Assembly (NCBI GenBank): GCA_004794655.1
Contig: SMMW01000617.1
Coordinates: forward strand, 14,321,501 to 14,385,500
Length of the DNA: 64,000 nt
Direction: 5' to 3'
Origin: Marisa cornuarietis
Lineage: Eukaryota; Mollusca; Gastropoda; Architaenioglossa; Ampullariidae
The translations under genes and the position numbers were made by a program. A model generated the notes under the pieces. It had not been told where the DNA came from. It searched no databases and saw only the letters and a program-made list of their open reading frames with translations. The stretch's first letter is position 1. Every line of letters starts with the position of its first letter. Of the stretch, positions 35,194 to 57,600 are shown piece after piece.

Positions 35194-38100
35194 ATGGAGG
35201 GTACAACCGCTCCATGCGTCAGCCAGAGGGCTTTGGTCCTTGTCAGTTTACTGTTGTGTGTTGGCGTGGATTTAGCCAACGTTCAGAGTGTGCCACCAAG
35301 TGAGTCTGTTTTGCAGTCTGTCCATTTCTTCATTGAAAACTTGCCCAATGCCTAAAAAAAACTATGAAGGCGATCCACGCTATAACTTTGTAACAGACAT
35401 GGAAATCTGAATCAGCTTATTAAAATGTTTCATGGGCAGTTAAGCTAACCTTTATTTACACTTGCCTTTGTGAGCCTACGCAACAAGACTCTTAAATTTT
35501 TTAAAGCTATCTGTAGACTGGTAAATTAGACAAAAAACAGCAAATGTTAATTATATTTGTTTGTTTTCTTTCTGGTAGCCATAATTAGGATATACTTGTA
35601 TGTAGCTATAATTATGATTCACTTTTATTTAACGACGATGTTGTCGTTGTCGTTTTCATCATCATCATCATCATCATTCTTTATTTTTTGTTCAACAAAG
35701 ATCAGTATATACTCCGTGACACTGTTACAAAATGAGTTGTCGCGTCACTTCCCATCACTCGAGCTGACGCGCACTCAACTTCTGTAACCCCCAACCACTC
35801 CACCCACCATTCACATCTGTGCCCCTCCACTCCCAACTGTTGTTCCACTCCAGCCAGTGCCATTTTGTACAGTGGTTACTACAGCAGCACCGTATGTTAG
35901 TGACAGCTTATTCCCAGTTGTTTACAAGTGAGTGGTTAGTATATGAGGAAAAATGAGGTTAAGGGGTCAAACTTATAGCTCCCCGCTCCACAGAAAAAAT
36001 CCCCAGAGTGAGGAGTCATTCGTCTACGTATGTCTTTAAAAGAAGAAGGAGAAAAAATCCACTGACCAGATCCCCTCTGTCCCCCCGCCCCACTCTCGTC
36101 AGTCTTGCTTATTCCTCAAAATAGTGATGTAAATTTACGGTTAGTTCGCCAAACATTCGAGTCTGGACGGTTGATCTGAATAGCAGAACGGACTAACGTC
36201 TCGCCAGTTTCGGGATGAGTGAATGAATGAAGTGTAGCCTGATGCAACACGATCAACATCTATCAGACAATATGTATATATAATATATGTATCTACACAT
36301 AACTACAATAGATACGTATCCAATCGCCATTTTTTGCAAATGTTTAAACTAAAATTGTCTAAAATTGTGCTTTCTGTCACAAATAAATTGCGTTTCGGAA
36401 AAAAAAGATTAGCCTAGATTTTTTTTATGTAATCATATAGTTATGGCATGGTGTTGCTAGGTAGCAACGCATAGCTACCACTGTGGTGATTCATCGTAGA
36501 GTTATACAGTGTAAAACTAATTTTACTTTTTAAAAAAAATCCAGCAGGAGACTGCGGGGGTTACCTCGTAGCTGGAAGTGGGTATTTTGACAGCCCAAAC
36601 TTTCCTGATCCGTACCCTGCTGAAGCAGATTGTCACTGGACCATTAGGAGCCGTACCCCAGGTTCCAGAGTGAACATCAGCTCGGAATTCTTCTACGTAG
36701 AACACCAAGAAAGTTGTCTGTGAGTACAGATGCAGCAGTTTAATTTATTCATCGCATTCTTTCTTTCTTTATATATCTTTTATATATTCGTTTTTTACTT
36801 CTTGCTTTCTTCCTTTTTTTCCATGTATGTCCGTCTGTTTGTCTTTAAATTCTTTTTCTGTTGTGGTTGTCATCGTCGGTTTGTTTGTTTGTTTTTTCTG
36901 TTTTACTTCTTTTTAATCAATCTAAAAGCAGTTTATGCTTCAGTTGTGAAGGTTTTTAACTGATTACACAAAAAAGAGTAGTATTACAATTGTCTCTGTT
37001 TTAATGATATTAATGGTATATCACTATACATATTTTTCGGGGAAGTTTTCGACTACTTAAGTCGCCGCCTTCATATTTTCACTCAACTTTAGGTGGGACC
37101 GTGTGGAAATTCAGGATGGCGACATCGTCCATACAGCTCTCCAAAAGTTTTGCGGTACCCAGCCTATCCACTTCCTTTCCGACAGCGATACCGTTTACAT
37201 TGCTTTCCATTCCGACATCTCCAACAATGATGTGGGTTTCAGAATACACTACACAGAAGTTCCATCAGGTAATAAGCATATTAAAAACTGTTTACTTTGT
37301 ATCTGAGCACTAATTATTCCTTTCCAGTCAGTAATTGATATTATAGTCTTTGTTGTTCCTCTTCTTATTCCTTTTCGTCCCCAGTGGAGCATAGGGCCGC
37401 AACTACACCATGCCAGCGAACCCGTTTTCTGGGCCTCCCTCCCCAGTTGGGCCCATGTCATTCCAGCTGCCTCCGCCTCGCCGTGGACCGATCTTCTCCA
37501 CGTCTGTCTGGGTCTCCCAACCCTGCGCCTCCCCTGTGGGTTCCAGTCCACAGCTTGTCGTGTTAGATTTTCGGCCGGGTTTCGCAGGGTGTGACCGACC
37601 CAGACCTACTTTCGCTTCTTGATGTCTTGGCTGGCAGGTTTTTGGTTGGCTCTCTCCCACAGGTTTGCATTGGAGATCTTCTCGGGCCATTTGATGTTGA
37701 GGATGTGGCACAGACATCTGTTGGTGATGGTGTTTGTCACACGCCATGTCTCAGACCCATATAGAAGGACAGATTTTACTTTCGTATGAAAGATGCGGAT
37801 CTTGGTGTGCTGAGATAATGCCTTGGAATTCCAGATGGATCGCAGGATGTGAAATGCATTCCTGGTTTTATTTATTCGGCTTCTTACATCTTCATCTGCA
37901 CCTCCATCCTTGGTGACTATGCTGCCTAGGTAGGTGAAGCGGTCAGTCTCTGTGATACATTCCCTGTGTAGTTGAAGTGGGGCTTCTTGCTTGTTGTTGA
38001 CCCGCATTACCTCTGTCTTCTTGATGTTGATTGTCAGGCCAGTTGTCGCTGCTTCTTCTGAGAGCCAAGTGAGCTTAGTCTGTGCATGTTGTTACTTGTG

Positions 38101-39624
38101 TGACAACAGGCTGATGTCGTCTGCAAAGTCGAGATCCTCAAGCTGCATGGCAAAGGTCCATTGAATGCCTGTGTTGCTGTTAGAGGTTGTTCTTTTCATG
38201 ATCCAGTCTATGACGATCAGGAAGATTGTCGGAGGGAGCATACAACCTTGCCTTACTCCAGTCATCACTGCGAATTAATTGCCTCCGCATTCTTTTCTCT
38301 AACCCGACGCGTACTCCTACTTTCAAGTGTGTATGTCTGTATGCGTGCGTCCGTGCATGTGTGTATTTGTATTTCTGTGTGTGGGCGCGCGCGCTTGCCT
38401 ATGCGTGAGTGTGTCTGCATGTGTATGTACTTCTGTTTGTACATGTTCGTGAATGTTTGTTCGTACATGTTTGTTCGTGGCTGCGTTAGATATACATATA
38501 TATATATATAAACATTCTTAACCTGAACATTACATTAAGCAAGTGTACTTCAGGTTATGGCTGTGATGAACTAGCTGAAAGTCTCTCCAAGCAAAGAGTA
38601 TACTTTATGCGCTCATTTAAGGTAAAGTCCTCTGTTTTCTGGTTTCTCAGACAGACCTGGATGTAACCTAACGGTGACCGACCTGGCTGGAGACATTTCT
38701 TCTCCCTTCTTTCCGGATCAATACCAACCTTCACTTACCTGCACTTACCTGCTTCAGGTAAACACCATTGTCATTGTCCATCCTTCTCCCTCTGTCCTCC
38801 TCCCATCCTCACCTTCCGCTTGCTCCTTCTCGCTTCCTTGTACGCACGAATGGTCTCTCCCTCTCTCTCGAGCTAGGCATCTTTACTCGGTGCAGTAGTG
38901 TAGCAAAAATTAAGCCCCACTCACTAATTTTATCTCATTTATTTACCTGCTTAATTGTTTCTTTTTCCTGGATTTGTTGGTGTTGTATTCTTACACGCCG
39001 CTGAGAGGCGCAAGTGTTTTTTTCTTCGTAGTCGTCGTCGTCGTCCTCCTCCTCCTCCTCCTCATCATCATCAAAATAATATCTTTAAAGAAGAGGCTGA
39101 GATTTTTTTCTAAAACTGTTTCAAATAAGAGTAAGGCAACAGGGTAAGAATAAGACTAACATGATTTTCAAGAAAGTCTGCAGCTGTCTCGTTCTTCTGA
39201 GTTTCTAGGCGCCGCCTGGGCACCGGGTGGAGGTAGAGTTCGACACATTTCACTTGGAATCTGCTCCCTGTGTCTACGACTACGTCGTTATATACGACGG
39301 ACAAGACACAAGTATGGCCGGTGCCTCTGCATCGAAATTAATAATAATAATAAATGAAACAAAAATGATTGGTAGAGCGCATACTCACACTCTTATGGAG
39401 CATGTTCTTAGCGCTTAAAACAAGAATGAGACATGGACAACATGGACAGCATACGAGGGACCGAGGAATGAACAGTACTGACGACGAATAGAAGACGCAC
39501 GATCTTGCATTAGCGGATAATTCTGACATTCAGAAAAACACCGAAGTCTTTGTGGAAGGAAGTGAAAGCGTTTCATCTCGTCATCATTCAGATCAGAACT
39601 ACTCAGTCTCTCTCTCTCTCTCTC

Positions 39625-39663
<39 letters not shown>

Positions 39664-42600
39664 GTAGGTTAATGTGCAAGCGCACAGCACATGAATTTGT
39701 CAATATTATTGTATGTTCATCTTCATACACTGTGACATGGCTAAGAAATGTTTAGTACGCTGTGATTGTAGGTTCCTATTGTTGTTTATCATTAGCAATG
39801 ATTGGAACAGCTTTCTTATAGGTGGTTTTGCGACGCCATAACAAAAATGGCTTACCTTCGAATCCTTCCTCCAATTATTCCGAGAAATAATATCCAGAAA
39901 TGAACAAAATTTTTCCTGAAGTCGCCTTCCCCATCTTCTTCGAATCCTTCCACCACTTTTTCCGAGAAATAATATCCAAAAATATACAGAATTTCTCCTT
40001 GTCACTTCTGCATCCATCCTAAACTTCTTTCTGCTATACTTTCCAGACTCTGCACCTCTCAACCTTTCCTTGAATTCCACAATTGCACCACAAATTTTCG
40101 CGAAATTTCCAAGCACACTCGCCATCTTCTCGAATTTCTATCGTCTGCTCACATCAAACCAAAACTTTTCCGCGCCAAATATCACATGACTAAAACCAGC
40201 CAATAATTTAACACAACTCCATGTCAATCACCATCACGTCACTCGACCAGTCCTCAACATTTGTCCTCTACAATAAAACCTAGCCCTAACCCTAACCCTA
40301 CCCATAACCCACACCCATAACCCTAACCCTAACTCAAACCCAAACCCCACTTCATAAATCACACACAACAACAACCAATGCCCAACCTCACACCCCTCTC
40401 AAATATCGATCCTACCCGGTCTACCCTCCCACAAAATAGCACAGCCCGCTGTGACCTAGTAAAACCACCTATCTGAAAGTTCTGCCCAATGATTACCCAA
40501 CCTTGGATTTAAAAGTTTGCAAAAAGAATCAGCACAGAAATTTTTTTATATGCCCTTATCGAAACCTGTGAAAAATTCTTGTATAAGAATTCTGTTCTTA
40601 CACTGTTTAACCTTACCTCTAATGATTTACAGCTATGATCGAATCAGCTCTGCAGTTATACAGTTTTGTTTTCCCTTCCCCTCACCTCAGATTCTTCCCA
40701 AATAGGAACCTACTGCGGTCGAGAAAAGCCTTCATCCATTTTATCCAGCAGCTCCTCCCTTTTAATAATCTTCGTGGCAGACGACGCAGTGGAAATGACA
40801 GGTTTCAGCGCCGCCTATCGGTTTATCGCCCCCTCCACAGTCCTGACTACTCACAAGACTACAGTGCCCAGTAGATCGTCCTACTTCGAAGGAAACCAAG
40901 GCAACAGAAAATGAATGAATGAATGAATGAAAAAACAGAAAGAAAGAAATATTTCATGGTTATGTTTTAACTGGGCAGAAGAGGGACGGATACAAAAGAG
41001 TGCAAATGAGTTTTGTGGGTGTGTGTGTGTATGTGTCCAAAAGGTAAAAAAGAAAAAAAATCGCAAGATACTAAAATCTGAAGCTGCCACAGAATTTCAG
41101 ACATCTGTAATCTGGTCATAATTTCTAAATTTCCTTATTGATATAGATTATTTACCTATCAGAAACTATTTTCATTTCTTTAATTTTTCGCTCCTCTAGC
41201 ATGCCTAAACAATCATATATTCGTGATTTTGTTTTCCTTTTTTTTCTATAACCAGTAATGTTACCTGTGTGTTTATGTCCCTTTTTCAAACGTATAACTC
41301 TATTGTAGTATTTTTGTTGTGAAGCTTCTTATGTTACAGTCCTTTGCATGCACCACATGCTGTTTGCGCTGTGCATGTTGCATTCGTAGTGTCCAATGTT
41401 ACAAGACAAATTCCTAAAATCATACAATTCCTATTCGTCTGCCCTTATTTAAGTGTATATGTTGTGACGAACAGAGTGTTACAAGGAACTGACGGCAAGG
41501 CAGGGTACAATCACCAGCCCTGGGTTTCCCGACTCGTACCCGAACAACATGCAGTGTGTCACCATTCTCCGTAGCAACACGCCCAGTTCTTTTCTCCTGG
41601 AGTTCTCCTTCTTTGATCTGGAAGAGGGAGAGAGCTGTCAATACGATTATCTCAAGATCTCTGCGAGTGAGTGAGTGAGTGAGTGAGTGAGTGAGTGAGT
41701 GAGTGAGTGAGTGAGTGAGTGAGTGAGTGAGTGAGTGAGTGTATAAAGAACGTTATTTAAAGCATACCCAATGAGCAAATGTGAAAATCAAAAATGCTTT
41801 TTACAGGCAACTAACCTAGCTATTCTCTTAATCATAAACCAAGCTATTCCCTTAACGAAAAAAACCATTAGAGTTTTTTGTTATAAATATAATCCTATTT
41901 GACGATGACTAAAACTTGATTTAACAATTTCTGTCCTTGTCATCTTAGTCCTGTCTTCTCCTCAACGAAATATTGAATCTTGTTTGCATTTTACCATTTG
42001 CATCTGGTTTGCCAGGCAGTGTACTAATGCCACGTGTCCGGATGTTTCGATATCTTTGAAGGCCCTAACAACGGTAGCGAATCGTCATCTGCAGACACTG
42101 AGGTTCTCTGCAATAAGGGGCCGAGTACAGGTGTCGTGACACTTCAGGGGTCAGAAGTCCGCCTGGAGTTCAAGTCGGACTTATCTGTCAATGCCGGTGG
42201 ATACCAAGGAACCTTTCTCATAGCACCAATAGATACAGGTGTACATTTCTTTTAGTACCAGTAGATATGAGTACACATTTCTCATAGTCTAAGTGACTAC
42301 AAGTACACATTTCTCATAGCCTTGCTGAGTACATCTACACATTTTTCATAGACCCATAGGTTCACATTTTTCTCACGGCACTAGTAAATATAGAATCACA
42401 CTTTTCGTAGTACAGGTGGATACACTTCCATTTTCTACATTTTATATTTTTACAGAAACGTGTCTTTTTGTATTTGTTTTTGTATTTTTTGAAAACAACA
42501 CCTAGTTTGTATTTCTTTTGAAGAAAATACCTAATTTGTATTTTTTAAGAAACGTACCTATTTTGTATTTGGAGAAGCATATGTATTTTATATTTTCTGA

Positions 42601-44499
42601 AGAAAAAGAATAATGCCTATTTTTGTCTTTCGTAAGAAACGTGTCTATTTCGACTGTGTCTCCAGAAGGAGGCTGCAGCGCACCTTGTGAAAATGGCGGC
42701 TCATGCGCAAGACAAGCTGTGGACGATATGCGATTCGTATGGAGGTAATATATGTGTGTTGCTTCGACACTTAGCAATGAGTTAGGACACCTGTAAACTT
42801 TCATGTAGAAGATATATGTCAGACACATAAAAATTTCCGAACCCACTGATTTGAAAACTGAAGTTTTGAACTTCTGTAGACAAGAACTTGTCTCACACCT
42901 CCAACAGGTGTTTGTGTCATGAGGGTTTCTCGGGGGAGCGATGTGAAAAGGAACACGAGACATGTGATCAAGTCACCTGCCTTCATGGCGTCTGTCGACC
43001 CGATCCCCATGATGAGGGGGTTTTCTGTGACTGTCAGCCTGGCTACGCTGGAGACCTGTGCCAGTTCCTTGTTCCGGTTAGTCAAATTAATATTTATTTG
43101 CCTTTATTTAAAGGCCGTATAGAAAACGGTTCGCACTTTTTATACAGATATTGGCAAAATATATCTTACCCACAGCTGTTTATGAAATATCCGTTTGCAA
43201 AGTAAACGTTTTGCACCTGTCATCAACACATGGGGAACAGAATCACACTTTTAATGGGGGTGGGTAGGTTGGTTGAGGGGGTGTTGTCAAAAAATGGTCA
43301 TTTCATTAGACATGTGACTCTACACTGCAGCTTCTCTGTGGTGTAGATGAGACTGTGTAACCCTCGTGCTGTGGACAATCACTAATGTTTAAAACAAAAT
43401 ATAAATAGTTTTATACTAAATACATAACAATTGTTATTTTCGATGATCGTTCATACTTCTTGGCTGGAACAGGTGGAGCCAGGAGATGGGCTGGTGTTCA
43501 CTAAAATTCCCGGAAACCTGTCGGTCAGTCTGGGAATCAGCATCCTTTTGGAGTGTGCGGTCAGCGACCCCTCGGCTGATGTGATGTGGTCAGTATATCA
43601 TTTCACCGACCAAGCAGATAAATACAGCCCGTAGCTTCAGCGATGGGTATAAGCAAAGTATACTTTGGAGTATTTCGAAAATGCTCATTCCATAGTATGG
43701 ATATTCCGAGGACAATAAGGTGAATAAGAGTTTAATAGATGAAAGGAGCCCAGTAACATTTCGGTCACTGGAGGCTGAGGTGTCAGAAGTCGAATTTATC
43801 TCAAGGCCAGTTTTTTGGCGAGGTTTTTCCTTACCTTCTCATCCTCTCCTCCCCTCCCGAGAAAGGTTCGGTTACCCACAGAACACCAGTGGTTGTGTTG
43901 TAGGCTCTACAGAGACCGCATACTGACCGAGTCGGATCGACGGTCGGGTGTGGAAGTCCACCCCGGGGGTGTGGCATACATTACTGAGGTACAAGAGCAT
44001 CATGAAGGACGCTACACGTGTATGGCTGTCACCCCTACAGATCTACTAGAACGTTCCATCTGGCTTTCCATCAAAGAACCATGCACTCTACGTAAGTTAG
44101 TTTTACAGAACTTTTGAACACTTTACTCTCAAGGTCTAACAACGGCTCAGTTCCTATAGACATTCAAATATTTCTTTCAAAGAACCATGCACTCTTTGTA
44201 AAGTTAATCCTGCAAGTCTTTTGAAACTCAATCTCAGGGTCCTTATCACTTTCACGGTCATTCAGTTATTTCTTTTTTCCTTTCTTTCACACGAGACATT
44301 TACAAGCAGGACGACATAAATTATGTAACTGACAACCAGTGATGACAGACCCCAATGCTTTTTCGTTTTTCATGCTATGAATGTTGCGCTATGCAAAGAA
44401 TAAAAAAAATAGACACAAATATTTGGAAAATATTAAAATAAAAACTTGGATATCCAATTTCATACGCATAATAACAGATGCACACGCGCACACATTTTA

Positions 44500-44562
<63 letters not shown>

Positions 44563-47500
44563 GATGTTTGTAAAGAGAGCGAGAAAGAGACTACGTGATG
44601 TACTGTTGTGAAAACTTTTTGATGACCACTTTACATTTCAGCTGTCGAGAGGGCGCCACAGAACATTACCGTTCGAGAAGGTGAGACAGCACTGTTCCAA
44701 TGTCTCGTGCGTTCCGCTGACGTCACCATGTGGCGAAAAGACGGTGACGTCATCGCTCAAGGCCCTCGCAAACGGGTGAGGGGAGATAATTATCTGTGTC
44801 AGTCACCACGTGTAGCATGACACGACACATGGAATGACTAGATCCCTACCGTAGACGTAGACTTCTTTACAATCACATACACGTATATTTATATATATTA
44901 CACTATACCAAATAAAAGTTTTAGAACATAAAACAGCGTGACAGAAAATTATACAAAGAAGATATGGACGAAATTTATTGTACAAATGCCAGACTTGACT
45001 GCTAATAGTTCCAGCTCGTGTTGGCTTTTTATTTGTTTGTTTTGCTAATTTAAAAAAAAATCACACAAACCTGTGAACGGAAATTCACCCGAATATCTAA
45101 TTTTAAAAAGTCGGTAACATAAATATTTAGTCAATTGGTGGACTGAGTGTTAAAATCTTTATAAAGAAACGTTATTCAGTAAAATATCAGTTCATTGATT
45201 TTTTAAAATATTATTTTCACCTGTCTGAAGATGTTGGTGAACAACTACCTAATGATTAACGAGGTGGTGGAGACAGATGCTGGCGAATATATCTGCTCTG
45301 CGCGGGACCACAGCGGATGCTTTGCCAAGGTGTCTGCCTACCTGACCGTGGAGACGGTTGGTCACGGAAGAGGTGAGAGCAAGCTTAGCAGGTAGAAGGT
45401 TATAAAAGACTACGGGTTACTCTATATTATAGATAATATATACATATTATTAAATATAATATTGAAGAATAATCCGCTGTCTAATATTACTCGCAAAAAG
45501 TAATCACGTGAGAGTGAGCTGTTGTCTATCTCGGGCCTCTCTCTTCTCCCCCACTGCTCAACCCTCCATGAATCGGGTGCCCATCCGCAGCTGGATCAAC
45601 TGGGAGCAATAATGATAATAAATAATAAAGTTGATATATATATATAGCGCTTTACCTTACCGCTAGGCTAAAGCCTTGCTCAAAGCGCTTTATAAAAAGT
45701 AATTGACGACGACGACGATGAATTGACGTACGACTTCCACTGTAACATCCTCTAAGTCAGTGAAGCTACGTGATTTCAGCAACCCGTACATTTCCGTAAA
45801 CCAAGACGTAGTGATATCAGGGTTTGATCTGTCTTTACCGATCGGCAGTAGGTCCGCAATGTCAGTGAACTAGGTGTAGTGATATCAGAGCTTCTAAAGC
45901 TCACCACCAGCTAGGTCTGCAGCGCCACTAACACCCTGCTACAATCCTCCCCCACCCTCCACCTTGTCTCCTTGGTAACACTTAGTATGTCAGCATCTCT
46001 CAGTGAAAGCAGCTCACGCTGAAGACGGCGCCTGTTGCAGAGTGTGGCCTCCCAAAGGTCAACGCCTTTGAAGGCCGCAGCTACCGTATCTCAAGTGGCC
46101 GAGAATCGCCGCAAGGATCTGCTCCATGGCATGTTATCATACGAGAAACAGTCAATGTAAGTACTTCTTGATCTGCTCCATGGCATGTTATCATACGAGA
46201 AACAATGTAAGTACTTCTTGATTTGCTCCATTGAATGTTATCATACAAGAAACAATGCATTTCTTGACCTGCTCCATGGCATGTTACATTACGAGAAACA
46301 GTCAATGTAAATACTTCTGGATCTGCTAGACACATTGTAGAAAAAAGAAAATTAAGGCCACTAACGAGATTGGATCATTTGGATGTCTCTCAAGCTTGTT
46401 GCCTCCGATTTCATACTCTGTTTCAGGAAGGGGAAGCCGAAGGGGTTAGGCTACCGAAGATGACGAACAATTGTCAAACGCTTTGGCGTAATCTAGGTAG
46501 ATGATATCGGTAGCATTATTTTCGTGAAAAATTGTGTAGTTTTTTTTTTAATCATTCGCTAGCATTGTTGAGCAGTTAAGTGATGCACTAACGCACGTTC
46601 CCGTGTGTGTCCTCTCCAAGGACTCGGCCTTCTGTGGCGGCTCCCTGTTGAACGAACGCTGGCTGGTGACTGCGGCTCATTGTGTGTACGAGTTCCAGGA
46701 AATCTACCGTTACCCATTCGATTCTAGACACATACAGCTCTCCCTAGCTACCAGAAACTGCCGAGGAGAAGGAGGAATACAGCGAAGAATCAAATCTTAC
46801 ATCTTACACCCGGATTTTGAGGTAAGCACCTGGACCTCGAAGTGAGGTAGCACACAGAAGGAACACTGAATATAAGAGTGTACCGACACATCCCTCCTTT
46901 GCTTGGTACTTTTGGCAGAGTACATTTTCGAACCACTATTTTTATGTGTTGTGCGCGTGCGTGAAAGATTAAGATGATATTACCCTTTATTTATTTATTT
47001 AAGCTCCTGAAAATAGTGGAGTCCGTGTGGAAGATAGGGGTAGGAAACCAGCAACTGAGACTACATCATGTCAATGCAGCTGGTTCTGGGTTGAGTCTGA
47101 ATTCATTTTTGAGTTGAAATACACAAAAATTTCTACTCCGAATTTTAACCAGTTTCTTTTTTCAATTAATGCAAAGAGAAGGTTAAGATTGCTTGATACT
47201 GAAGAAGAATAAGCGAGCTGGTTGGCTGCGCAAGATAAAGGCTGGGTAGAACACGTTATCAAAAAGTCATATCTGCCTTCCTAGGGTTCAATATTCAACA
47301 ACGACATAGCCCTGTTTGAGATGGACGAGCCAGTTTCGTTTTCCGATGATGTTCTACCCATCTGTTTGGAGCGGGCTGCGTTTGTCGAGGAGCTGCTGCG
47401 CGGAGGCAAACTGGGCATCGTCACCGGCTGCGGAAATCTGTATGAGGAAGGGCGTTCACCTCTTTACCTCAATGAGGTCAGTGACCTTATCAGCAACTGC

Positions 47501-48045
47501 TCAAATCAGTTAACTGTATTGTTTCAAGGGGAAATGACTAAAATGTCTTTTGCTTTGGGGTGACAAGAGTATACATACATTTTTATTTTTCAACCCACAA
47601 AATTAACCACAACTTTAGAAGATAAATCGAATACAAGTTTTTCTTTCTGTTTTTGAAAAAAACGTTGTTTAAAAGTCGCATTCACGTGCACAGGATTAAG
47701 TGACGATTACGTGATAGTTACGTGATGAAGCCGTTTTTACGTTGTCTGCAGGTCAAGCTGCCCTACGTGCCGCGGGAGGTATGTAGCCAGCGCGCGCACG
47801 CGGTCAACGCCAGCTTTACGGAAGGCATGATGTGCGCCGGCTACTCTCGTAGCATGCAAGGCGACGCATGCACGGGCGACAGTGGCGGCCCCTACGTCAT
47901 GGAGTACAACGGCCGCTTCGTGCTCGTCGGCATCGTCTCCTGGGGAGTCGGGTGCGACCGCGAAAACCAGTACGGGTACTACACCCACGTGTCCCGCTAT
48001 TACGACTGGATAACGGAGACGACTGGTGTCACCTCAAGAGGTTAA
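35194..48045 (+). CDS. secreted multidomain serine protease, CUB3-EGF2-Ig2-trypsin, 942 residues
   Basis: Exons: 35194-35299, 36548-36719, 37093-37268, 38651-38757, 39209-39311, 40706-40870, 41475-41666, 42062-42238, 42666-42744, 42908-43076, 43473-43588, 43904-44091, 44642-44775, 45231-45372, 46041-46156, 46621-46821, 47285-47476, 47752-48045. All phases agree; total 943 codons including TAA. Residues 1-~29 are a signal peptide (ALVLVSLLLCVGV). CUB domains lie near 37-151, 155-270 and 277-398, each with the Glu/Asp/Asp calcium-site pattern. EGF1 has Cys 403, 407, 413, 427, 429, 438; EGF2 has Cys 445, 450, 455, 466, 468, 477. Ig domains lie near 487-580 and 585-672. The protease follows cleavage Arg691|ISSG, with His734 (TAAHC), Asp788 (NNDIAL), Ser889 (GDSGGP) and Asp883 in the S1 pocket, predicting trypsin-like specificity. 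The plan resembles C1r/C1s/MASP with Ig in place of CCP domains. The architecture is read from sequence; an innate-immune role is inference. I recognise no named family with this order. Confidence 0.92.
37335..38268 (-). mobile_element. 5'-truncated RTE-like retrotransposon in protease intron 3
   Basis: The minus strand encodes reverse-transcriptase pieces: GVRQGCMLPPTIFLIVIDWI, the catalytic LDFADDISLLSH, FTYLGSIVTKDGGADEDV, RIFHTKVKSVLLYGSETWR and the terminal GRRRVGRPRQTWRRSV. Stops and frameshifts break it (one stop just after LLSHK), so it is dead. Only the C-terminal half remains. It is antisense to the protease and lies between exons 37,093-37,268 and 38,651-38,757. Confidence 0.85.
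39339..39500 (-). repeat. CR1 3'-tail-related repeat beside a splice donor
   Basis: (AAT)n then GGAGCATGTTCTTAGCGCTT, ACATGGACAGCATACGAGGG and GAACAGTACTGACGACGAAT. It begins 28 bases after the end of protease exon 5 (39,311). Confidence 0.7.
39628..39661 (+). repeat. (TC)n-(CA)n microsatellite
   Basis: A (TC)n run at 39,607-39,625 leads into (CA)n, in the intron between protease exons 5 and 6. Confidence 0.9.
39818..40472. mobile_element. inverted-repeat element carrying telomere-like repeats
   Basis: About 655 bases bounded by ATAGGTGGTTTT and its exact inverse AAAACCACCTAT. The interior has two ~90-base direct repeats (both containing CCGAGAAATAATATCCA, near 39,877 and 39,960) and a CCCTAA-rich block at 40,276-40,350. 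It has no credible ORF. It lies in the intron between protease exons 5 and 6. The class is unknown; a non-autonomous DNA transposon is likely. Confidence 0.6.
40276..40350 (+). repeat. interstitial telomere-like (CCCTAA)n block
   Basis: Degenerate CCCTAA/CCATAA hexamers, the metazoan telomere unit on the C-rich strand. It is embedded in the inverted-repeat element and flanked by single-copy protease exons, so it is not a chromosome end. Confidence 0.7.
41665..41741 (+). repeat. (GTGA)n microsatellite starting at the exon 7 splice donor
   Basis: About 19 uninterrupted GAGT units. The first GTGAGT is the exon 7 donor (41,667), so the whole array consists of repeated consensus 5' splice sites. 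Confidence 0.9.
42217..42432 (+). repeat. ~32-base minisatellite made from the end of exon 8 and its donor
   Basis: Six to seven degenerate units. The first is the last 22 bases of exon 8 (CTCATAGCACCAATAGATAC...) plus the first ten of the intron; later ones read CTCATAGTCTAAGTGACTAC and CTCATAGCCTTGCTGAGTAC, each ending ACACATTT. Confidence 0.8.
44071..44275 (+). repeat. 106-base tandem duplication spanning the exon 12 donor
   Basis: Unit 1 (44,071) begins TCAAAGAACCATGCACTCTA in the exon and runs over the donor GTAAGT; unit 2 (44,177) begins TCAAAGAACCATGCACTCTT and carries a decayed donor, TTTGTAAAG. Confidence 0.8.
44504..44559 (+). repeat. (CA)n microsatellite
   Basis: About 28 CA units in the protease intron between exons 12 and 13, ~80 bases before the exon 13 acceptor. 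Confidence 0.95.
46117..46329 (+). repeat. ~50-base tandem repeat (4 units) spanning the exon 15 donor
   Basis: Units start at about 46,117, 46,171, 46,221 and 46,267 with ATCTGCTCCATGGCATGTTA; the first lies in exon 15 and encodes part of the protease N-terminus. Unit 2 keeps a perfect copy of the donor, CAATGTAAGTACTTCTTG. Confidence 0.88.
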
Positions 48046-48329
48046 CTGCGACCGGGTTTCCACCCCGCGCCCTACTCAGAATCCCCCACCCTCTCCACCA
48101 TCACTATCACCAAAAAAAAAAAAAAAAAAATCATGCTTTAGGGATGTTTAGACTGACATCAGGACATAGCCCACTGTTTACATAAAGAACACTTTGTAAC
48201 AATTCAAACTGAGTATCCTTTAATTTTCTCAAGCAATTACTGTATGGATGTGGCATGTTTGCTGAGGTTAAAATAGGCCGCCATGACCCAGCCTCCGTTA
48301 CCGATTCAACAAAAAACATGATCACCAAC

Positions 48330-49932
48330 CAACCATCCGAAAGGCGACTATACTTTTCCTAAGATCATAGAGAAAATAGTTTTGACACAGCTCTGGGCAT
48401 ACTTACAAGAGCACCATCTTATCCCACAAGCTCAGTCGGCATATAGACCTTTCCACAGCACCGAGACCACTCTTATTAAAGTAACAACAGACATATTATC
48501 TGCTCTTGACAGTGGTGATGTCTCTCCATTAACCCTACTGGACCTGTCTGCTGCATTTGACACTATAGACCACTCTCTGCTTCTTCACAGACTCCACACC
48601 CTCTACGGGATTTCTGGACCTGTCCTCTCATGGTTCAACTCCTATCTCACTGATAGGACCTCAGACTGTGGTAGTTGATGGTCAGATATCTCGCCCTGCT
48701 TCACTTTTCTGTGGTGTTCCCCAAGGCTCAGTACTTGGCCCAGTTCTGTTCATCCTGTATACTAAGCCACTTTCATCATGCATCCGGTCTCACCAGGTTT
48801 CTCATCAGTCCTATGCTGATGACACGCAGCTTTACTGTTCCACTCCGCCGGCTGAGTCTCACTCTGCTATTAGCTCTCTAGAAGCTTGTATCAGCGATGT
48901 CAAGGGCTGGATGGTAAAAAACAAGCTTAAACTAAATGATGATAAAACGGAAGCCCTCTTGTGCCATAGAAGAAGACATCAACCTTCACTCGTCAGTCTG
49001 CCCAATCACATCAAGGTGGGCGACAGCAACATCACCTTCACGTCATCCGTTAGGAATCTGGGATTTATTGTCACTGATGACATGACACTCGATAGACATG
49101 TAGCAGCTGTCTGTCGGTCTGCCTATTATGAGCTCCGTAAGATCAGTGCCATCCGTCACTTTCTCTCTACACGCGCTACCAACACTCTTGTTTGTGTGTT
49201 TGTTCTTTCTCGACTTGACTACTGCAACTCCTTGCTGGCAGGCTGCCCTGACTACCTCATTCAGAAACTCCAGAGAGTACAGAACTCCGCAGCACGTCTG
49301 GTGCTTAGAGCAAGGAAACGGGACCATGTCACTCCTCTCCTTCGTTTTCTACACTGGCTACCCATCCGTTCTCGCATTCAGTACAAACTGTCTGTGCTGT
49401 GTTTTAATTTCTTTGCTGGCTCCTGTCCTGACTATTTCTCTGAACTTCTCATCCCTTACTCTCCATCCAGACAACTCCGCTCTTCGTCTGACGACCGTAC
49501 TCTGACTGTTCCTGTCACCAGAACAACAACATATGGTCACAGGACTTTTGGTTACTGTGCTGCAAAACAATGGAACTCTCTTCCTTTCCATATCCGCCAC
49601 CTTCCTACAACTGAATCTTTCAAATCTGCACTGAAAACGCACCTCTTCCTTGAGCATTACTCCTAACACAGTCCACACAATGCTCGTCCTTCTTACCCTC
49701 CCCCCTTCCCTCTTGCTACTTTACCCATCTTTCTCGCAGAATCACTATATTTCTCTGTTCCTGTTACTTGATGCCTTTTGTTTTCTGTTTCGTCAGTACT
49801 GTCGTTTTCTTTTGTCCCTTTGTTCTGTGTCTACTTAGTCCACGTCTCTTCCTCGTTTTAAGCGCTAAGAGCATGCTCTCTATGAGTGTGAATATGCGCT
49901 ATAAAAATCTTCACTATTATTATTATTACAAG
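48330..49932 (+). mobile_element. 5'-truncated CR1-like retrotransposon, nearly intact frame
   Basis: Two overlapping frames (48,382-48,678 and 48,668-49,666) form one reverse transcriptase with a single frameshift near 48,665: AQSAYRPFHSTETTLIK, LDLSAAFDTIDH, CGVPQGSVLGPVLFILYT, catalytic SYADDTQLY, NKLKLNDDKTEALL, SRLDYCNSLLAGCPDYL, LQRVQNSAARLVLR, LHWLPIRSRIQYKL and stop at 49,664. The endonuclease is missing. The 3' UTR ends in (ATT)n at 49,915-49,927. The intact YADD and single lesion suggest recent insertion. It begins under 300 bases after the protease stop codon and may be part of that gene's 3' UTR. Confidence 0.9.
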
Positions 49933-51664: not shown

Positions 51665-54600
51665 TCAGCAGCACTTATCAGACTGCTCTGGATTGCCTTC
51701 CACCAATAAGATATCTTTTCCTATCTTACAGCCCAGTAAGTGGACAAATTCACTTTCATTATCCAAGAGCCACTGAGGGGAGTATACTCCTTCAGTCAAC
51801 ACAGTTTTATTACCCTGTGAGAAGAACAAAAAAAACTGCAGTTACTTGAAAATAAACTACCCTCATTCCATAAACTTTATTTCTTAATAGCAAATAATAA
51901 TAATAATAATAAATTTATAGAAGTATAGTTTTAAATAAATTTAGCAGTAAGAAATACTGTGAATGTGCAATGAAAAAATAGACAAGAATATTCCAAGTAA
52001 ACTTATAATCTAAATTTTTTTGAAAAAGATCTTAGTTCCAGTGGTGCTTTTACAACATTAATATGAGCCTGTCAACAACTTTAATAAGATCGTATTTACC
52101 AGAACAATCAATCAATAAATAAAAAAGTGCTGCACTTCTGCACATATTCACCAAAGTAGATTTAGTCCTGTAAAGTGTCAGAGTTTTAGGTTCAAACCCT
52201 TCTCCTGTCTCCAAGCAAGTGAAACTTACACCAAGCTTCGTAAGTTTATCAGAAAGTATGGGCCATGCAAAGCCACCCTGTAAGTAAAAAAAAAAAAACC
52301 ACCTGTGTATAAGATCACTTTTATGTACATACATATGTGCATATAAACATTCACTGAGTCTCTCCAAGTCCCTTCTCCATTTTTTTTCTCCCAGCGAATT
52401 ATTTTCTTTGTTCAGATCTGTTTCACCTACTGCAAACACTTTCACACCTGTAGGTGCCCAAATGTTTATGTTAATGTTCAGGTTCTTATGTTCAAAGTCC
52501 AAAGAGGTGACAAATACAAGGCCTACCAACTCCTTAACTCACCAGAGAGTGCCTCTTCAGCACAGGTCTTTTCGCCCCTCTAGATGCATGAATTTTTATC
52601 ATTTAAAAAAAAATTGTAAAAAAATATAATGATGTAAGGTATAACTGTAATTTTTGTTTTTCTTCAAAGATAAATGTAAGTAAAATTCTAATTTTCACAA
52701 CTGAATTTGCTTAAACTTTTTTTCACAACTAGATATTCAGAAAGGTAAGTAAATGGGATAAAAAAAAACAATTCAGTCACTGAAGGCTCCAATGCCCACT
52801 TTCTCACAGAAGGCACTGCTGTATTCAACCAATGGACTGAATATTGCACAGACCTGTAAAGCTTCCAGCTAAAGACAGACACTAACATGCTTTAAAACAA
52901 CCCGACTACAATCATCAAACCTGCAGATCTGCTAGTCCTATGGGAAAAAGTTGAAAGAGTGGGATGCAGTCTGAAGGGACGAAAGTTACCTGACGTTGAC
53001 AACATTTCAGCTGAGTTAATCAAGTAGTAGCGCAAGGAAGAAATAACAAAGCCCTCAATGCTCTGTGCCAAAGAGTCTGGAAATGCAAAGAACGGCCAAA
53101 AGAATCGCTAGTCGTAACTCTTCCAAAGAAAGGTAACAGCAAACAGTACCAAAGCTGCAGAACAATAAGCCTAATCAGCAAACCAAGTAAAGTGAACTAG
53201 TGAACTAGTCTGGTTCAGTCGTGTAACTTGGCACGATACTTAGTTGAAGACTGTCCTCCAAGGAACCTTGGAAGGAGGTCGACGGTACAGTGGAAAGAGG
53301 GAGAAATGGCTCACAAATACGAAGAAGTGGACTGCAGGACCTGCTCACCATTGCTCAAGACAAGCCTGAGTTAAAGGCCTTGTCAGCCGACACATCTATC
53401 CAAGTGTGTAAAGGCTTGTCAGGCTTATTTGTTCTTTGCGATGTTCTTTGTGGATAGGACCTATTTTGCACTTCGTTGTCTAGTTTGTTTGATTTTACTC
53501 ATGATTATTTAATTGCATCACTAGCTGACATCACGTTCTTTGTGCTGGAAGTCTTTTGGTGTGCAGTAGTGTTGGGTTTTGACAAAACTATTGTGTTTCA
53601 CAAGTAAAAAAAAAAAATAAAGGAAATTTTCTTCATGTTAAAAAAACATCTTGGCTGCACGTTGTACTTCTGAGTGCGCCATGCTGTGCATGCCGCCACA
53701 TTAAGCTTCCCTTAACAAATGGTACCAGTCAAGGAATGAATGAATAAATGAATGAATGAATGGTGTATCAAGACTAAAATGTCTCAAAGCAAAAAGTAAT
53801 AAAAGTGAGTAACAGTTATGAAGTGAGAATAAATGGAAATAAAACTTACCCCACAATAGGTGAAAAGAGTATAGAGCAAATTTGACAAAATCAGTGCATG
53901 CTTTGCCCGAGTCACAGCCACGTACAGCAAGTTTACTTCCTCAATAGGCAGTCTCAGGGATGGACTTCTTGTCCCTGTAAACAATCAGCAAATATTGTCA
54001 TTTTTACAAATAGCATTTTCTTTAAAAACCATTTCTTCTCCTTCTTTTTGTGCTATTTGATCCAAAATATATGCATTGTGGGTTTTTTTAAAACCCTGTT
54101 GTTTAATCAAAACAGTATGAGAAACAAGGGACAGTAACAGCACCAACAGCCAGCGTTCTGATTATAGCAGGTCACATCACCTATTAAGTGTGGTCAAAGC
54201 ATTTAAGATATCGTCAGTCTGCATATATACGCTCTCTCTCTCTTGATGTCTGACCCTCCTGCACGTTCTAGTATTCTAGCACTCAGTAAGAATTTCCAAC
54301 TATCTTCTCTATGCTTTTATGGTTTAAAATCAGGAATATGCAATGGATACAGTTGTAGTTCCGTATTTATCCCACACTTTAGCAATCTGAATCAGGCACC
54401 TTAGCAATCTGAATCATAAGGAACCCTAAAATTTGTGTGCTAACATCATCAACTTAGAAAGACTCATACAATGCAAATCTCAGCTAGCAGAGAGAAAACT
54501 GATTATGCTGACATATAAATTTGTGTGCTGACTTACACTCTATGTCGGCCCTTGATTCAATGAAGTCATCAGTAATTTTCACAGTTGAAAACTCTAGTCC

Positions 54601-57600
54601 TTTAGCCTTGTGAACTGTGCTCAGCACTACATCTGCAATCAGAAATAAATGTTTTCTTGTACAAACTGTTACTGACAAAGGCAAAACAGTACATTCATGC
54701 ACTTCTGTGAATACATGCACTACACACAAAAAAAATCTAATTATGAGTTCAACAATGGCAATCTGGATCGTTGGAGACACATGCTTGGAATGAAGTAAAT
54801 ACGTTTCTAAAAACATGTAAATGTGAATCTGACATAAGACATTCATGAATTTAATAAAATAAAATAAAAAGGCACACTTATTTATATGTTTCTACATACC
54901 TCATATATATATAAATGCACATACATTTGCACCGACACAAACATGCCTGTGGATTCACGCACACATGCATAGACAGTTGTGCTGGACTGCTCAATCTGGA
55001 GAAGAACTTTAAATGTTATTGGCATCAAATCACCAGAACATTCAAAAGAAGAAAATAAAAGTGAATTTGCAATTGTGTACCTGCTTGTGTGAGGTCTCTG
55101 AGAGTCTTCTCCCTTATTTTTGACATGCAAGTGGGCAAAATTTGGTCATAAGTTTTAACAATCCGGATCTTGCCAAGCAGCTCATTATCGGTGGTCTTCT
55201 GGGCATATTTCTCAAGCTCGGCCATATTCTGGAAACGAACTATGAACTTGCTTTTTATGTCTCTCTGTCCTGCAAACAATTGCAAATGAGAGAAAGAAAC
55301 CATTGCTGAACTGCAAATATGTGTCACAAGCATATAAGGCAGTTTGCCAAGAAGAATGTTTTACATTATCCACTTAAAAAAAAAAATTCAACATTCTTTA
55401 TGTGTGTTTACTTTAAAAGTTAACAATGTTCTTTCTCTACTTGTCGACTTTTTTAACTGTGGACAAACTTCAAAGGGCTCAGATTTACGCCACTCATACT
55501 GTCTTCCATATGTGCAAAGCGGACCATGCTTCAATCCTCCTCTGTGAGCTTCCCTGGCTGACCGTCCAAGACTGCACTGATTACAAGGTCACCACACTTG
55601 TACCGTTATCTTCACGGCTTTATCCCAGCATAACTGTCTGAGCTACCGACACCTTACCACAAAAGTCTGTCTTTTCAGTCTGCTTGTGTTGCCCTCCTCT
55701 CTGTTTCACACATCACGCAATAGAAATTCGCCAGTAACTTCTTCTCCTTCTCTGGTCTCACCATTAGGAATTCTGAACTTTACTGTGTATGAATGAATGT
55801 AGCTCCTATGTAAGCCTGAAGCATGAATGTATGTGAGTCAATCTGGTGCAGTGGATATGAATATGTTGTGATATTGTTTTGCTTTCACATAGAGCTGCTA
55901 TTAATCACCCTCTGAGATAAAAGTCTTTAAAATTAAAGACTCCCTCTTTAATAAATCTTTCAAAACCAAGCAGGCTCCTCAGCTTTATCCATCTGCTTCA
56001 TTTATGTCTGCCACGGTGTCGTCTGTTGCAACTTGCGTTTCGTTATTTTATCTTTTACTGTCCATTCATTTGTAGTCTTTCAGGCACAATGCCTTGAGCT
56101 CACTTCCACATGGGTAAAAACATCTTCTACAAAGTCAGTTATTATTACAATACATCATTCACTGACACAGACACACAGTGCTGATAAATATTGCTACCTT
56201 CAGGCTGATGCAGCAGGTTGTAGATGTCTTTCAGCATAGGGAAGTCAAGCCCTTCCAAACCCTACAAACAATGAAGGAATAATATGACCGTTCACCTCTT
56301 GTTCTCTATCACATTTTTAATGGGTGACCAGCAAACAGGATCAATGTATAAATTCGACTTCCGTACAGTAACTGCTTAAGACAGTGTAAAGTGATTGTAA
56401 GGGAGCATTGTATTGTAATGTGCCTATCATTGTGTCATTGGCATATATATTGTAAGGGAGAGTGATGTCCCTTCGCCTTACAGGCTAGAGGGGAACAGAT
56501 CTCCATTTCGTTTCGTCTACTGTGAAATCTGTGCTTCTGCTAAGCCTTTTGCTATCTTCTGGATTATTCTTCTATGCCTGCATCATGTAACTTCTTTTTT
56601 ATGGACTACTTCAAATGGTTGCCTATTGGTCTCAACTGCCACATCTGCGCCAGCTTGCCACTTTTGTACCTATGTGTCAGCATCATAATTTAACTCTCTG
56701 ATAACTTTTCTGCTATTACATCATGAATTTTTACCACTCTTGATGCAACTGTTATGCCACTTATCATTGTGAAAGTCTGAATCAACAGCTATGTTCTGTG
56801 CAGCCTCATGTCTCTGTCACCATTGAAACATGTGTTACCACTTGTAGTCTTGGGAGATGTACCGATCTCTGGTGTCGAGATTGTGCATGCTATGACTGGT
56901 CCATATTTTCTGCTGGGTTTCTCAAGTCAGATATCTGAACAGACCTCTTCTCAAGTTCATCTTTTCCCGCTCGCAGTCTATCATTCCTTTCCTATGTCGA
57001 ACCCTGGCATGCTTCATGCACAGATTTTTCTTTTATGTCTGTTGTTGTCTCTAGCTGGTTTCTTGCTGATATGTTTTGGTCTGTGTATTCAATAGGTGTG
57101 TTATATACATTTTGTATCAGTTGAATGTGTGCTTTCTGTGTTTGTATTCAGAAAATGTTTGTAAAGCTAATTGAGTGTACAGTACAGTAGAGGAATGCGC
57201 TATATAAATCTACAGCATTATTATTATTAATGCAGGCATAATCGTTACCAAAGACACAGCTGACAATCTGCACTCATGTCTGATAGGTGACAGTTCATCT
57301 TCACAAACACGACTTACTGACAATGATGACAACACTGGTACATAGATACGCTCTACTGCATTTGCAAATTATGGGAATATTACACAGGGATGTTGTAAGA
57401 TTTTCTAAGTTACAGATGTGCACCGTGCAACAACCTCTTCAGGAATTTGTATTGAGAAAATGGGCCAAAGAAAGCTATGATCTGGCAACAAAAGTTCTAT
57501 CTTGGAGTACTTATCTGGGGCTGTAGTTATGAAGTGAGATTAAATTGTTACCCTAGGGCAAGTCGGGGAACTTAAAGAGAAGCCTCTTATTTCCGCCCAG

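What the first reader, a model, noticed from the sequence alone, without database searches (positions are those of the whole stretch)
35194..48045. Complement-protease-like gene with CUB-CUB-CUB-EGF-EGF-Ig-Ig-trypsin order
Eighteen exons join with no phase conflict into 942 residues plus stop. The plan is that of C1r/C1s/MASP (binding CUB/EGF modules, two spacer modules, CGLP-type linker, serine protease), but the spacers are Ig and not CCP domains, and CUB and EGF modules are grouped rather than alternating. I know of no named family with this order. It could be an independently assembled humoral recognition protease of molluscs.
Basis: partly seen in the sequence, partly recalled or inferred. 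Interest (0 to 1): 0.88.

Follow-up and report, generated by a model that had tools for sequence, protein, structure and literature searches.

The report
Snail immune-type cousin of thrombin
This snail gene encodes a multi-part protein-cutting enzyme, predicted to be secreted and likely switched on where it binds microbes or wounds; its kind is already reported from molluscs and arthropods as "MASP-like", but its cutting domain groups with the clotting enzyme thrombin rather than with the complement enzymes it was named after, which suggests that thrombin-type enzymes are likely older than vertebrates.

Summary
The gene is real. Eighteen exons (35194-48045) join into 958 residues, not 942: exon 6 runs to a GC donor at 40901. 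The order CUB-CUB-CUB-EGF-EGF-Ig-Ig-trypsin holds. The Pomacea canaliculata orthologue is identical at 892 of 959 aligned positions. Gastropods and, with a reduced first EGF, clams share the order; spider and mite relatives have CUB x3-Ig x2-protease without EGFs. The kind is in print: MASP-like proteases with two Ig domains in place of two CCPs (PMC11312191). It is a new member of a known kind, not private to molluscs.

Less expected: the protease domain groups with human thrombin in three trees (98/93, 98/93, 100/98); profile scores agree (thrombin 261 bits, MASP1 200, C1s 161). AU tests against a MASP origin are mixed (p 0.003 to 0.32). Molluscs share an extra cysteine pair (26 of 27 rows).

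Most likely it is a secreted zymogen: calcium-binding CUBs dock it, cleavage at Arg707 activates it, and it cuts C3 or another haemolymph substrate. Secretion, docking, activation and substrate are inferred.

The parts
35194..35299 (+). exon 1: start codon, predicted signal peptide (residues 1-~31)
   Evidence: GT donor; signal peptide judged by eye; the model of the orthologue has a low-confidence helix at 9-23 there
36545..36719 (+). exon 2: first half of CUB1; CAGCAG tandem acceptor
37093..37268 (+). exon 3: second half of CUB1, with two calcium-site Asp residues
38651..38757 (+). exon 4: start of CUB2
39209..39311 (+). exon 5: middle of CUB2
40691..40900 (+). exon 6: end of CUB2 and Thr-rich linker; non-canonical GC donor at 40901
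   Evidence: the reading SRSSYFEGNQE matches FEGNQE of P0001
41475..41666 (+). exon 7: first half of CUB3; donor lies at a (GAGT)n array
42062..42238 (+). exon 8: second half of CUB3
42666..42744 (+). exon 9: first part of EGF1
42908..43076 (+). exon 10: end of EGF1 and all of EGF2
43473..43588 (+). exon 11: first half of Ig1
43904..44091 (+). exon 12: second half of Ig1
44642..44775 (+). exon 13: first half of Ig2
45231..45372 (+). exon 14: second half of Ig2
46041..46156 (+). exon 15: CGLP linker (Cys693), predicted activation site Arg707|Ile708, start of the protease
46621..46821 (+). exon 16: His750 and the extra cysteine Cys777 (70-80 loop by alignment)
47285..47476 (+). exon 17: Asp804, Cys824 (partner of the linker cysteine by homology), extra cysteine Cys846
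47752..48045 (+). exon 18: Ser905 (codon AGT), CDR..Y loop as in thrombin, stop codon

Best explanation
The gene encodes a three-CUB, two-EGF, two-Ig trypsin-like protease of the protostome 'MASP-like' kind whose protease domain groups with thrombin, and it is predicted to be a secreted zymogen that likely docks through calcium-binding CUB domains and would cut complement C3 or another haemolymph substrate once cleaved after Arg707. Shown here: the gene structure, the domain order, an intact catalytic triad, a trypsin-type specificity Asp, the calcium-site residues in the CUBs, and the grouping of the protease domain with thrombin. Inferred: secretion; that the CUBs bind a lysine-bearing recognition partner (a lectin) or a surface; that the EGF and Ig pairs act as a spacer and exosite arm, as CCPs do in C1s and MASPs; that an upstream protease or self-cleavage cuts Arg707|Ile708, with a Cys693-Cys824 bond holding the chains together; and that C3 is the substrate. 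The molluscan extra cysteine pair (Cys777-Cys846) would, if bonded, pin the 70-80 loop to the start of the autolysis loop, next to what is exosite I in thrombin (placement recalled).
For: Gene and orthologues. Domains. The catalytic Ser motif and the specificity Asp stand in 23 of 23 rows, the His motif in 22 of 23, and a basic residue before Ile/Val at the activation site in 22 of 22 rows where the pattern was found; Mactra was missed by the pattern. The CUB1 calcium trio is kept in gastropods (E and first D 16/16; second D 15/16, one gap), in bivalves 3/4 (one row lacks CUB1) and in chelicerates 3/3; CUB3 in 16/16, 4/4 and 3/3 except one Gln for Glu in a chelicerate row; CUB2 in 16/16 and 3/3 but lost in bivalves, 0/4. 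Thrombin grouping: 98/93, 98/93 and 100/98; thrombin first with a profile of 22 family domains; the 60 PDB chains listed of 555 are all thrombin/prothrombin, FIX or FXa. Segment GCDRENQYGYYTHV here against GCDRDGKYGFYTHV in thrombin. Automatic database names such as 'coagulation factor X-like' and 'Vitamin K-dependent protein C' occur among the relatives. C3 as substrate: later papers report that oyster CgMASPL-1 is bound by CgCLec-CCP and promotes CgC3 cleavage (passages of PMC9316650, PMC12645952 and PMC12842671). P. canaliculata has a C3 (PMC13365339, passages).
Confidence: 0.55

Rival explanations
1. It is a true MASP/C1r/C1s orthologue in which protostomes exchanged two CCP domains for two Ig domains and rearranged CUB and EGF, keeping the lectin-pathway role.
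For: PMC11312191 groups MASP-like proteases of Arthropoda, Mollusca and Annelida near vertebrate C1s in its tree (abstract and passages). The protease shares Tyr225 with the MASPs. AU p for family + all MASP/C1r/C1s was 0.0975 and 0.189, so not rejected there.
Against: Three trees put the family with thrombin at 98/93 or more; the cleaned set rejects family + all MASPs (p 0.034, post hoc); family + MASP1 was rejected once (p 0.0034) but not twice (0.322; 0.059). MASP/C1 profile scores are 61-100 bits lower than thrombin's with the 22-row profile.
Confidence: 0.27
2. It belongs to the thrombin-like lineage but works in haemolymph clotting, wound sealing or matrix processing, not in complement.
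For: Nearest protease relatives are thrombin and the vitamin K-dependent clotting enzymes. Databases already call a clam and a mite relative 'coagulation factor X-like' (P0027, P0026).
Against: The reported oyster MASP-like protease acts on C3 (passages), though its orthology was not tested. CUB modules of this calcium type are typical of lectin-complex proteases (recalled).
Confidence: 0.2
3. Two neighbouring genes (a CUB/EGF/Ig protein and a protease) were joined on paper.
For: None found beyond the absence of RNA from this species.
Against: Full-length orthologues in many gastropods and coding regions of 901-1026 aa on contigs of 3.2-3.5 kb, most likely spliced transcripts (P0003, P0011, P0017, P0019).
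Confidence: 0.02

Closest known systems
Protostome MASP-like proteases (MASPL; MASP-related molecules, MReM), as in PMC11312191 and in Gorbushin 2018/2019 (the latter two cited by papers I read, not seen)
   Same: CUB domains, two Ig domains where C1r/C1s/MASP have two CCPs, C-terminal trypsin-like protease; reported from molluscs, arthropods and annelids
   Different: The printed order I could read (arthropod C1s-like) is CUB-EGF-CUB-IG2-protease; here CUB x3 then EGF x2, and the spider and mite relatives I saw have three CUBs and no EGF. The name implies MASP kinship, which the protease trees do not support
Thrombin and the vitamin K-dependent clotting proteases (FX, FIX, FVII, protein C)
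   Same: Protease domain groups with thrombin at 98/93 to 100/98; Tyr225, Asp189; the molluscan CDR..Y loop as in thrombin; a long 60-loop (by eye; MASP-1 has one too)
   Different: No Gla and no kringle domain; CUB, EGF and Ig modules instead; molluscs add a cysteine pair; any link to a clotting substrate is untested
C1r, C1s, MASP-1/2/3
   Same: CUB and EGF modules followed by two spacer modules, a CG-P linker and a protease; calcium-site residues in CUBs; Tyr225
   Different: Ig instead of CCP; CUBs and EGFs grouped, not alternating; EGFs without the calcium motif; the histidine-loop cysteines are kept, as in MASP-1 but not in C1r, C1s, MASP-2 or MASP-3; protease domain not with theirs in the trees
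Ovochymases and matriptase (CUB plus protease); TMPRSS6 and enteropeptidase by fold
   Same: CUB domains joined to a trypsin-like protease; Foldseek's first and third rows are TMPRSS6 and 'Inactive-EP', taken to be enteropeptidase
   Different: The ovochymase, matriptase and TMPRSS9 rows lie on a separate branch (99/93) and mostly lack Tyr225; no Ig pair. TMPRSS6 and enteropeptidase were not in the trees

Membership tests
Protostome MASP-like protease (MASPL/MReM) | CUB domain(s) plus two Ig domains in place of two CCPs plus one trypsin-like protease in one chain | tested here: met
   Pfam; gene model; alignment of 23 relatives
Protostome MASP-like protease (MASPL/MReM) | Orthology to the published MASPLs (e.g. 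Littorina littorea QBA18416.1, oyster MASPL-1) | not tested
   Those sequences were not among the listed hits. A Littorina saxatilis protein named MASP1-like is 68% identical over 95% of the query
MASP / C1r / C1s | CUB-EGF-CUB-CCP-CCP-protease order | tested here: not met
   three CUB, two EGF, two Ig; no Sushi/CCP among the 15 families with E up to 0.1
MASP / C1r / C1s | Calcium-binding EGF between the CUBs | tested here: not met
   EGFs follow CUB3 and lack the D-x-D-E type motif (motif recalled; sequence read by eye)
MASP / C1r / C1s | Calcium-site Glu/Asp/Asp in CUB domains | tested here: met
   CUB1 and CUB3 from gastropods to chelicerates; CUB2 lost in 4 of 4 bivalve rows
MASP / C1r / C1s | Protease domain inside the MASP/C1r/C1s clade | tested here: inconclusive
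   Outside it in three trees. AU for family + all MASPs p 0.0975, 0.189 (51), 0.034 (66); for family + MASP1 p 0.0034, 0.322, 0.059. Only human MASPs were available
MASP / C1r / C1s | Binds collagen-bearing lectins and cleaves C4/C2 or C3 | not testable with these tools
   needs protein
Thrombin / vitamin K-dependent clotting proteases | Protease domain groups with thrombin | tested here: met
   98/93, 98/93, 100/98; one human thrombin row only
Thrombin / vitamin K-dependent clotting proteases | Gla domain (and kringles in prothrombin) | tested here: not met
   neither among the families listed up to E 0.1
Thrombin / vitamin K-dependent clotting proteases | Sodium-loop residues Asp221 and Tyr225 | tested here: met
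   This protein has both. Across rows: Asp221 in 25 of 27 molluscan, 0 of 9 chelicerate, 2 of 43 reference rows; Tyr or Phe at 225 in 25 of 27, 7 of 9 and 17 of 43 (rows without the segment count as not having it). Sodium activation itself untested

The most novel reading that the evidence does not exclude
The protostome 'MASP-like' Ig proteases are not MASPs but the protostome branch of the thrombin lineage. A thrombin-type catalytic domain existed before protostomes and deuterostomes split, sat behind CUB and Ig modules and served humoral defence by cutting C3; vertebrates re-used that domain with Gla and kringle modules for clotting, and molluscs bolted its exosite with a private disulphide.
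Probability: 0.38. Interest if true: 0.78.

Novelty: new member of a known kind. Interest (0 to 1): 0.5.

Why it matters
The gene itself is one orthologue in a conserved family. It matters because the family carries the name MASP and is read as the protostome counterpart of the lectin-pathway proteases (PMC11312191, passages), while its protease domain points to thrombin. If that holds, the account that the prothrombin precursor diverged from C1r/C1s/MASP already present in deuterostomes (so stated in PMC9368803, passages) needs revision, and molluscs and spiders offer a living test of what a thrombin-type enzyme did before fibrin clotting. It also gives a concrete candidate for a C3-cutting protease in Pomacea, where C3 has been characterised and the paper that did so does not mention MASP (PMC13365339, term search of its text).

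Tried and rejected

Rows dropped before counts: for ten long or redundant rows were removed from the 59 and six added; for twelve more were dropped after seeing (all five bivalves, two long rows, five near-duplicate or aberrant rows), so its p values are post hoc. The trees hold 12 of the 19 gastropod proteins found (plus the window counted among the 12), because near-duplicates and broken models were not entered; the mite P0046 fell out because its domain was split.
Full report
What is there. One boundary needed correction. With a GT donor, exon 6 gives a 948-residue protein; the P. canaliculata orthologue P0001 reads FEGNQE at that place, and the window encodes the same residues followed by CAAG|GCAACA, a GC-AG intron. 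The corrected protein has 958 residues, the same as P0001, with 892 of 959 aligned positions identical. The window is therefore from an ampullariid or close relative (inference). CUB1, CUB2, CUB3, Ig2 and the start of the protease are flanked by phase-1 introns, the pattern expected of shuffled modules (the rule is recalled).

Domains. Pfam finds CUB three times, EGF twice, Ig twice and Trypsin once, above the gathering scores, and neither Sushi, Gla nor Kringle among the 15 families up to E 0.1 (run on the 948-aa version). The AlphaFold model of P0001 with 23 family sequences has mean pLDDT 78.2; most ten-residue blocks of the protease lie between 73 and 95, the activation loop 703-709 is under 50, and pTM of 0.45 means that the arrangement of modules is not determined.

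Distribution. The first protein search returned 65 proteins at E up to 0.001. Fifteen are gastropod or gastropod-like relatives, some partial, at 44-92% identity (P0001-P0015, two of them unnamed); four further gastropods appeared. Mercenaria, Ruditapes and Mactra have the same order with a reduced first EGF (by eye). Uloborus (spider), Leptotrombidium and Blomia (mites) and unnamed records that group with them have CUBs, two Ig and a protease without EGFs: three CUBs in the three rows aligned, and by eye in the others. In a tree of the Ig domains of ten proteins all Ig1 stand apart from all Ig2 at 95/95, so the Ig-Ig-protease block was likely inherited from a common protostome ancestor. The CUB tree is not resolved. 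Annelid, brachiopod and oyster members were not among the hits listed; the printed record reports annelid and oyster ones.

Known kind. [quoted passage not shown] littorea and oyster members, and argues that they still cleave C3 in molluscs. PMC9835746 (passages) names MASP-related molecules, from its reference 41, as suggested C3-cleaving proteases of other spiralians and did not find them in a nemertean. I did not see the Gorbushin papers or the oyster paper itself (not held); the oyster result is taken from passages of three later papers.

Protease kinship. The family's protease domain was compared with references in several ways. (1) Database ranking: the 60 PDB chains listed, of 555 matched, are thrombin/prothrombin, FIX or FXa. 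(2) Profiles: a profile of 22 family domains scores thrombin 261, two vitamin K-type domains 250 each, FIX 234, MASP1 200, MASP3 194, MASP2 185, C1r 182, C1s 161 bits; the gastropod-only profile also puts thrombin first (204.7 against 200.8), the chelicerate-only profile ties thrombin and a vitamin K-type domain (259.7, 259.2), and the bivalve-only profile gives FX 170.6 and thrombin 169.1. (3) Mean identity to 22 family rows: thrombin 40.6%, two vitamin K-type domains 38.4% and 35.9%, then C1r 35.7%, of 37 references. (4) Trees: family + thrombin has 98/93 in a 59-row tree, 98/93 in a 55-row tree with added FIX, protein C, plasminogen, hepsin, HGFA and FXI, and 100/98 in a cleaned 43-row tree. 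In one search the group of family, thrombin, vitamin K-dependent and MASP/C1 rows stands apart from all other proteases at 99/93.

Residues. Gastropod members share with thrombin the segment GCDR....YG.Y; Asp221 occurs in 25 of 27 molluscan rows, 0 of 9 chelicerate rows and 2 of 43 reference rows (thrombin and one fish domain). An extra cysteine in the 70-80 loop together with one at position 141, where others have Trp, Phe or Tyr, is found in 26 of 27 molluscan rows (the exception is the second fragment of the broken Batillaria model), 0 of 9 chelicerate and 0 of 43 reference rows; broken models count as two rows and uncovered positions as lacking. A disulphide is inferred, not shown. The serine codons are AGT for Ser195 and TCC for Ser214.

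How it likely works. Secretion as a zymogen; calcium-dependent docking through CUB1 and CUB3, whose Glu/Asp/Asp sites are kept from gastropods to chelicerates; the EGF and Ig pairs as arm and spacer; cleavage at Arg707|Ile708 with the chains held by Cys693-Cys824; trypsin-like cutting directed by Asp at the specificity site. C3 is the most likely substrate because of the oyster report and because Pomacea has a C3 (PMC13365339, passages; that text does not contain the word MASP, and the trypsin-type sites that it discusses are Factor I-type processing sites). Every step after the sequence features is inference.

Verdict. The bolder point is that the name MASP-like may be wrong and that thrombin is the nearer relative.

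Noticed in passing
window 41665-41741: A perfect GAGT array of 19.2 copies begins at the donor of exon 7. Each unit is a potential GTGAGT donor; the first keeps the frame and the 7 later copies tested reach a stop after 358-359 residues, so repeat slippage would be a splicing hazard.
   Followed up: partly
window 42214-42351 and 46116-46327: The 3' ends of exons 8 and 15 together with their splice donors are tandemly duplicated into the following introns (32-bp and 50-bp units), which may give spare donors.
   Followed up: no
window 48322-49666 (+): Two overlapping ORFs of a non-LTR retroelement begin about 280 bases after the stop codon in the same orientation; the second (48569-49666) matches RVT_1 at E 6.1e-16. 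Other likely retroelement pieces: 37606-38091 (-) in intron 3 (Pfam DUF6451), 16943-17413 (-) (Exo_endo_phos) and 23774-24337 (+) (zf-RVT).
   Followed up: partly
window 53784-59456 (-): Pieces of a UvrD-type helicase on the minus strand (three ORF pieces match UvrD models, two of them above the curated cut-off); by motif wording it looks like F-box DNA helicase 1 (recalled).
   Followed up: no
P0027 and P0174 (clam relatives): Two clam paralogues have Ser in place of the catalytic His.
   Followed up: no
P0016 (Uloborus spider): One predicted protein holds two Ig-Ig-protease units in a row (two protease motifs, Ig by eye), either neighbouring genes fused by annotation or a real double protease.
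   Followed up: no
family activation site: Where the pattern matched, the new N-terminus is I-S/A-x-G in gastropods and bivalves instead of the usual I-V/I-G-G; the chelicerate rows keep IIGG/IVGG, with Lys before it in all but one row.
   Followed up: partly
bivalve CUB2: All four clam sequences aligned have lost all three calcium-site residues of CUB2 while keeping those of CUB3 (and of CUB1 in the three rows that have it).
   Followed up: partly
window 40277-40347: A short telomere-like CCCTAA repeat lies in intron 5.
   Followed up: no
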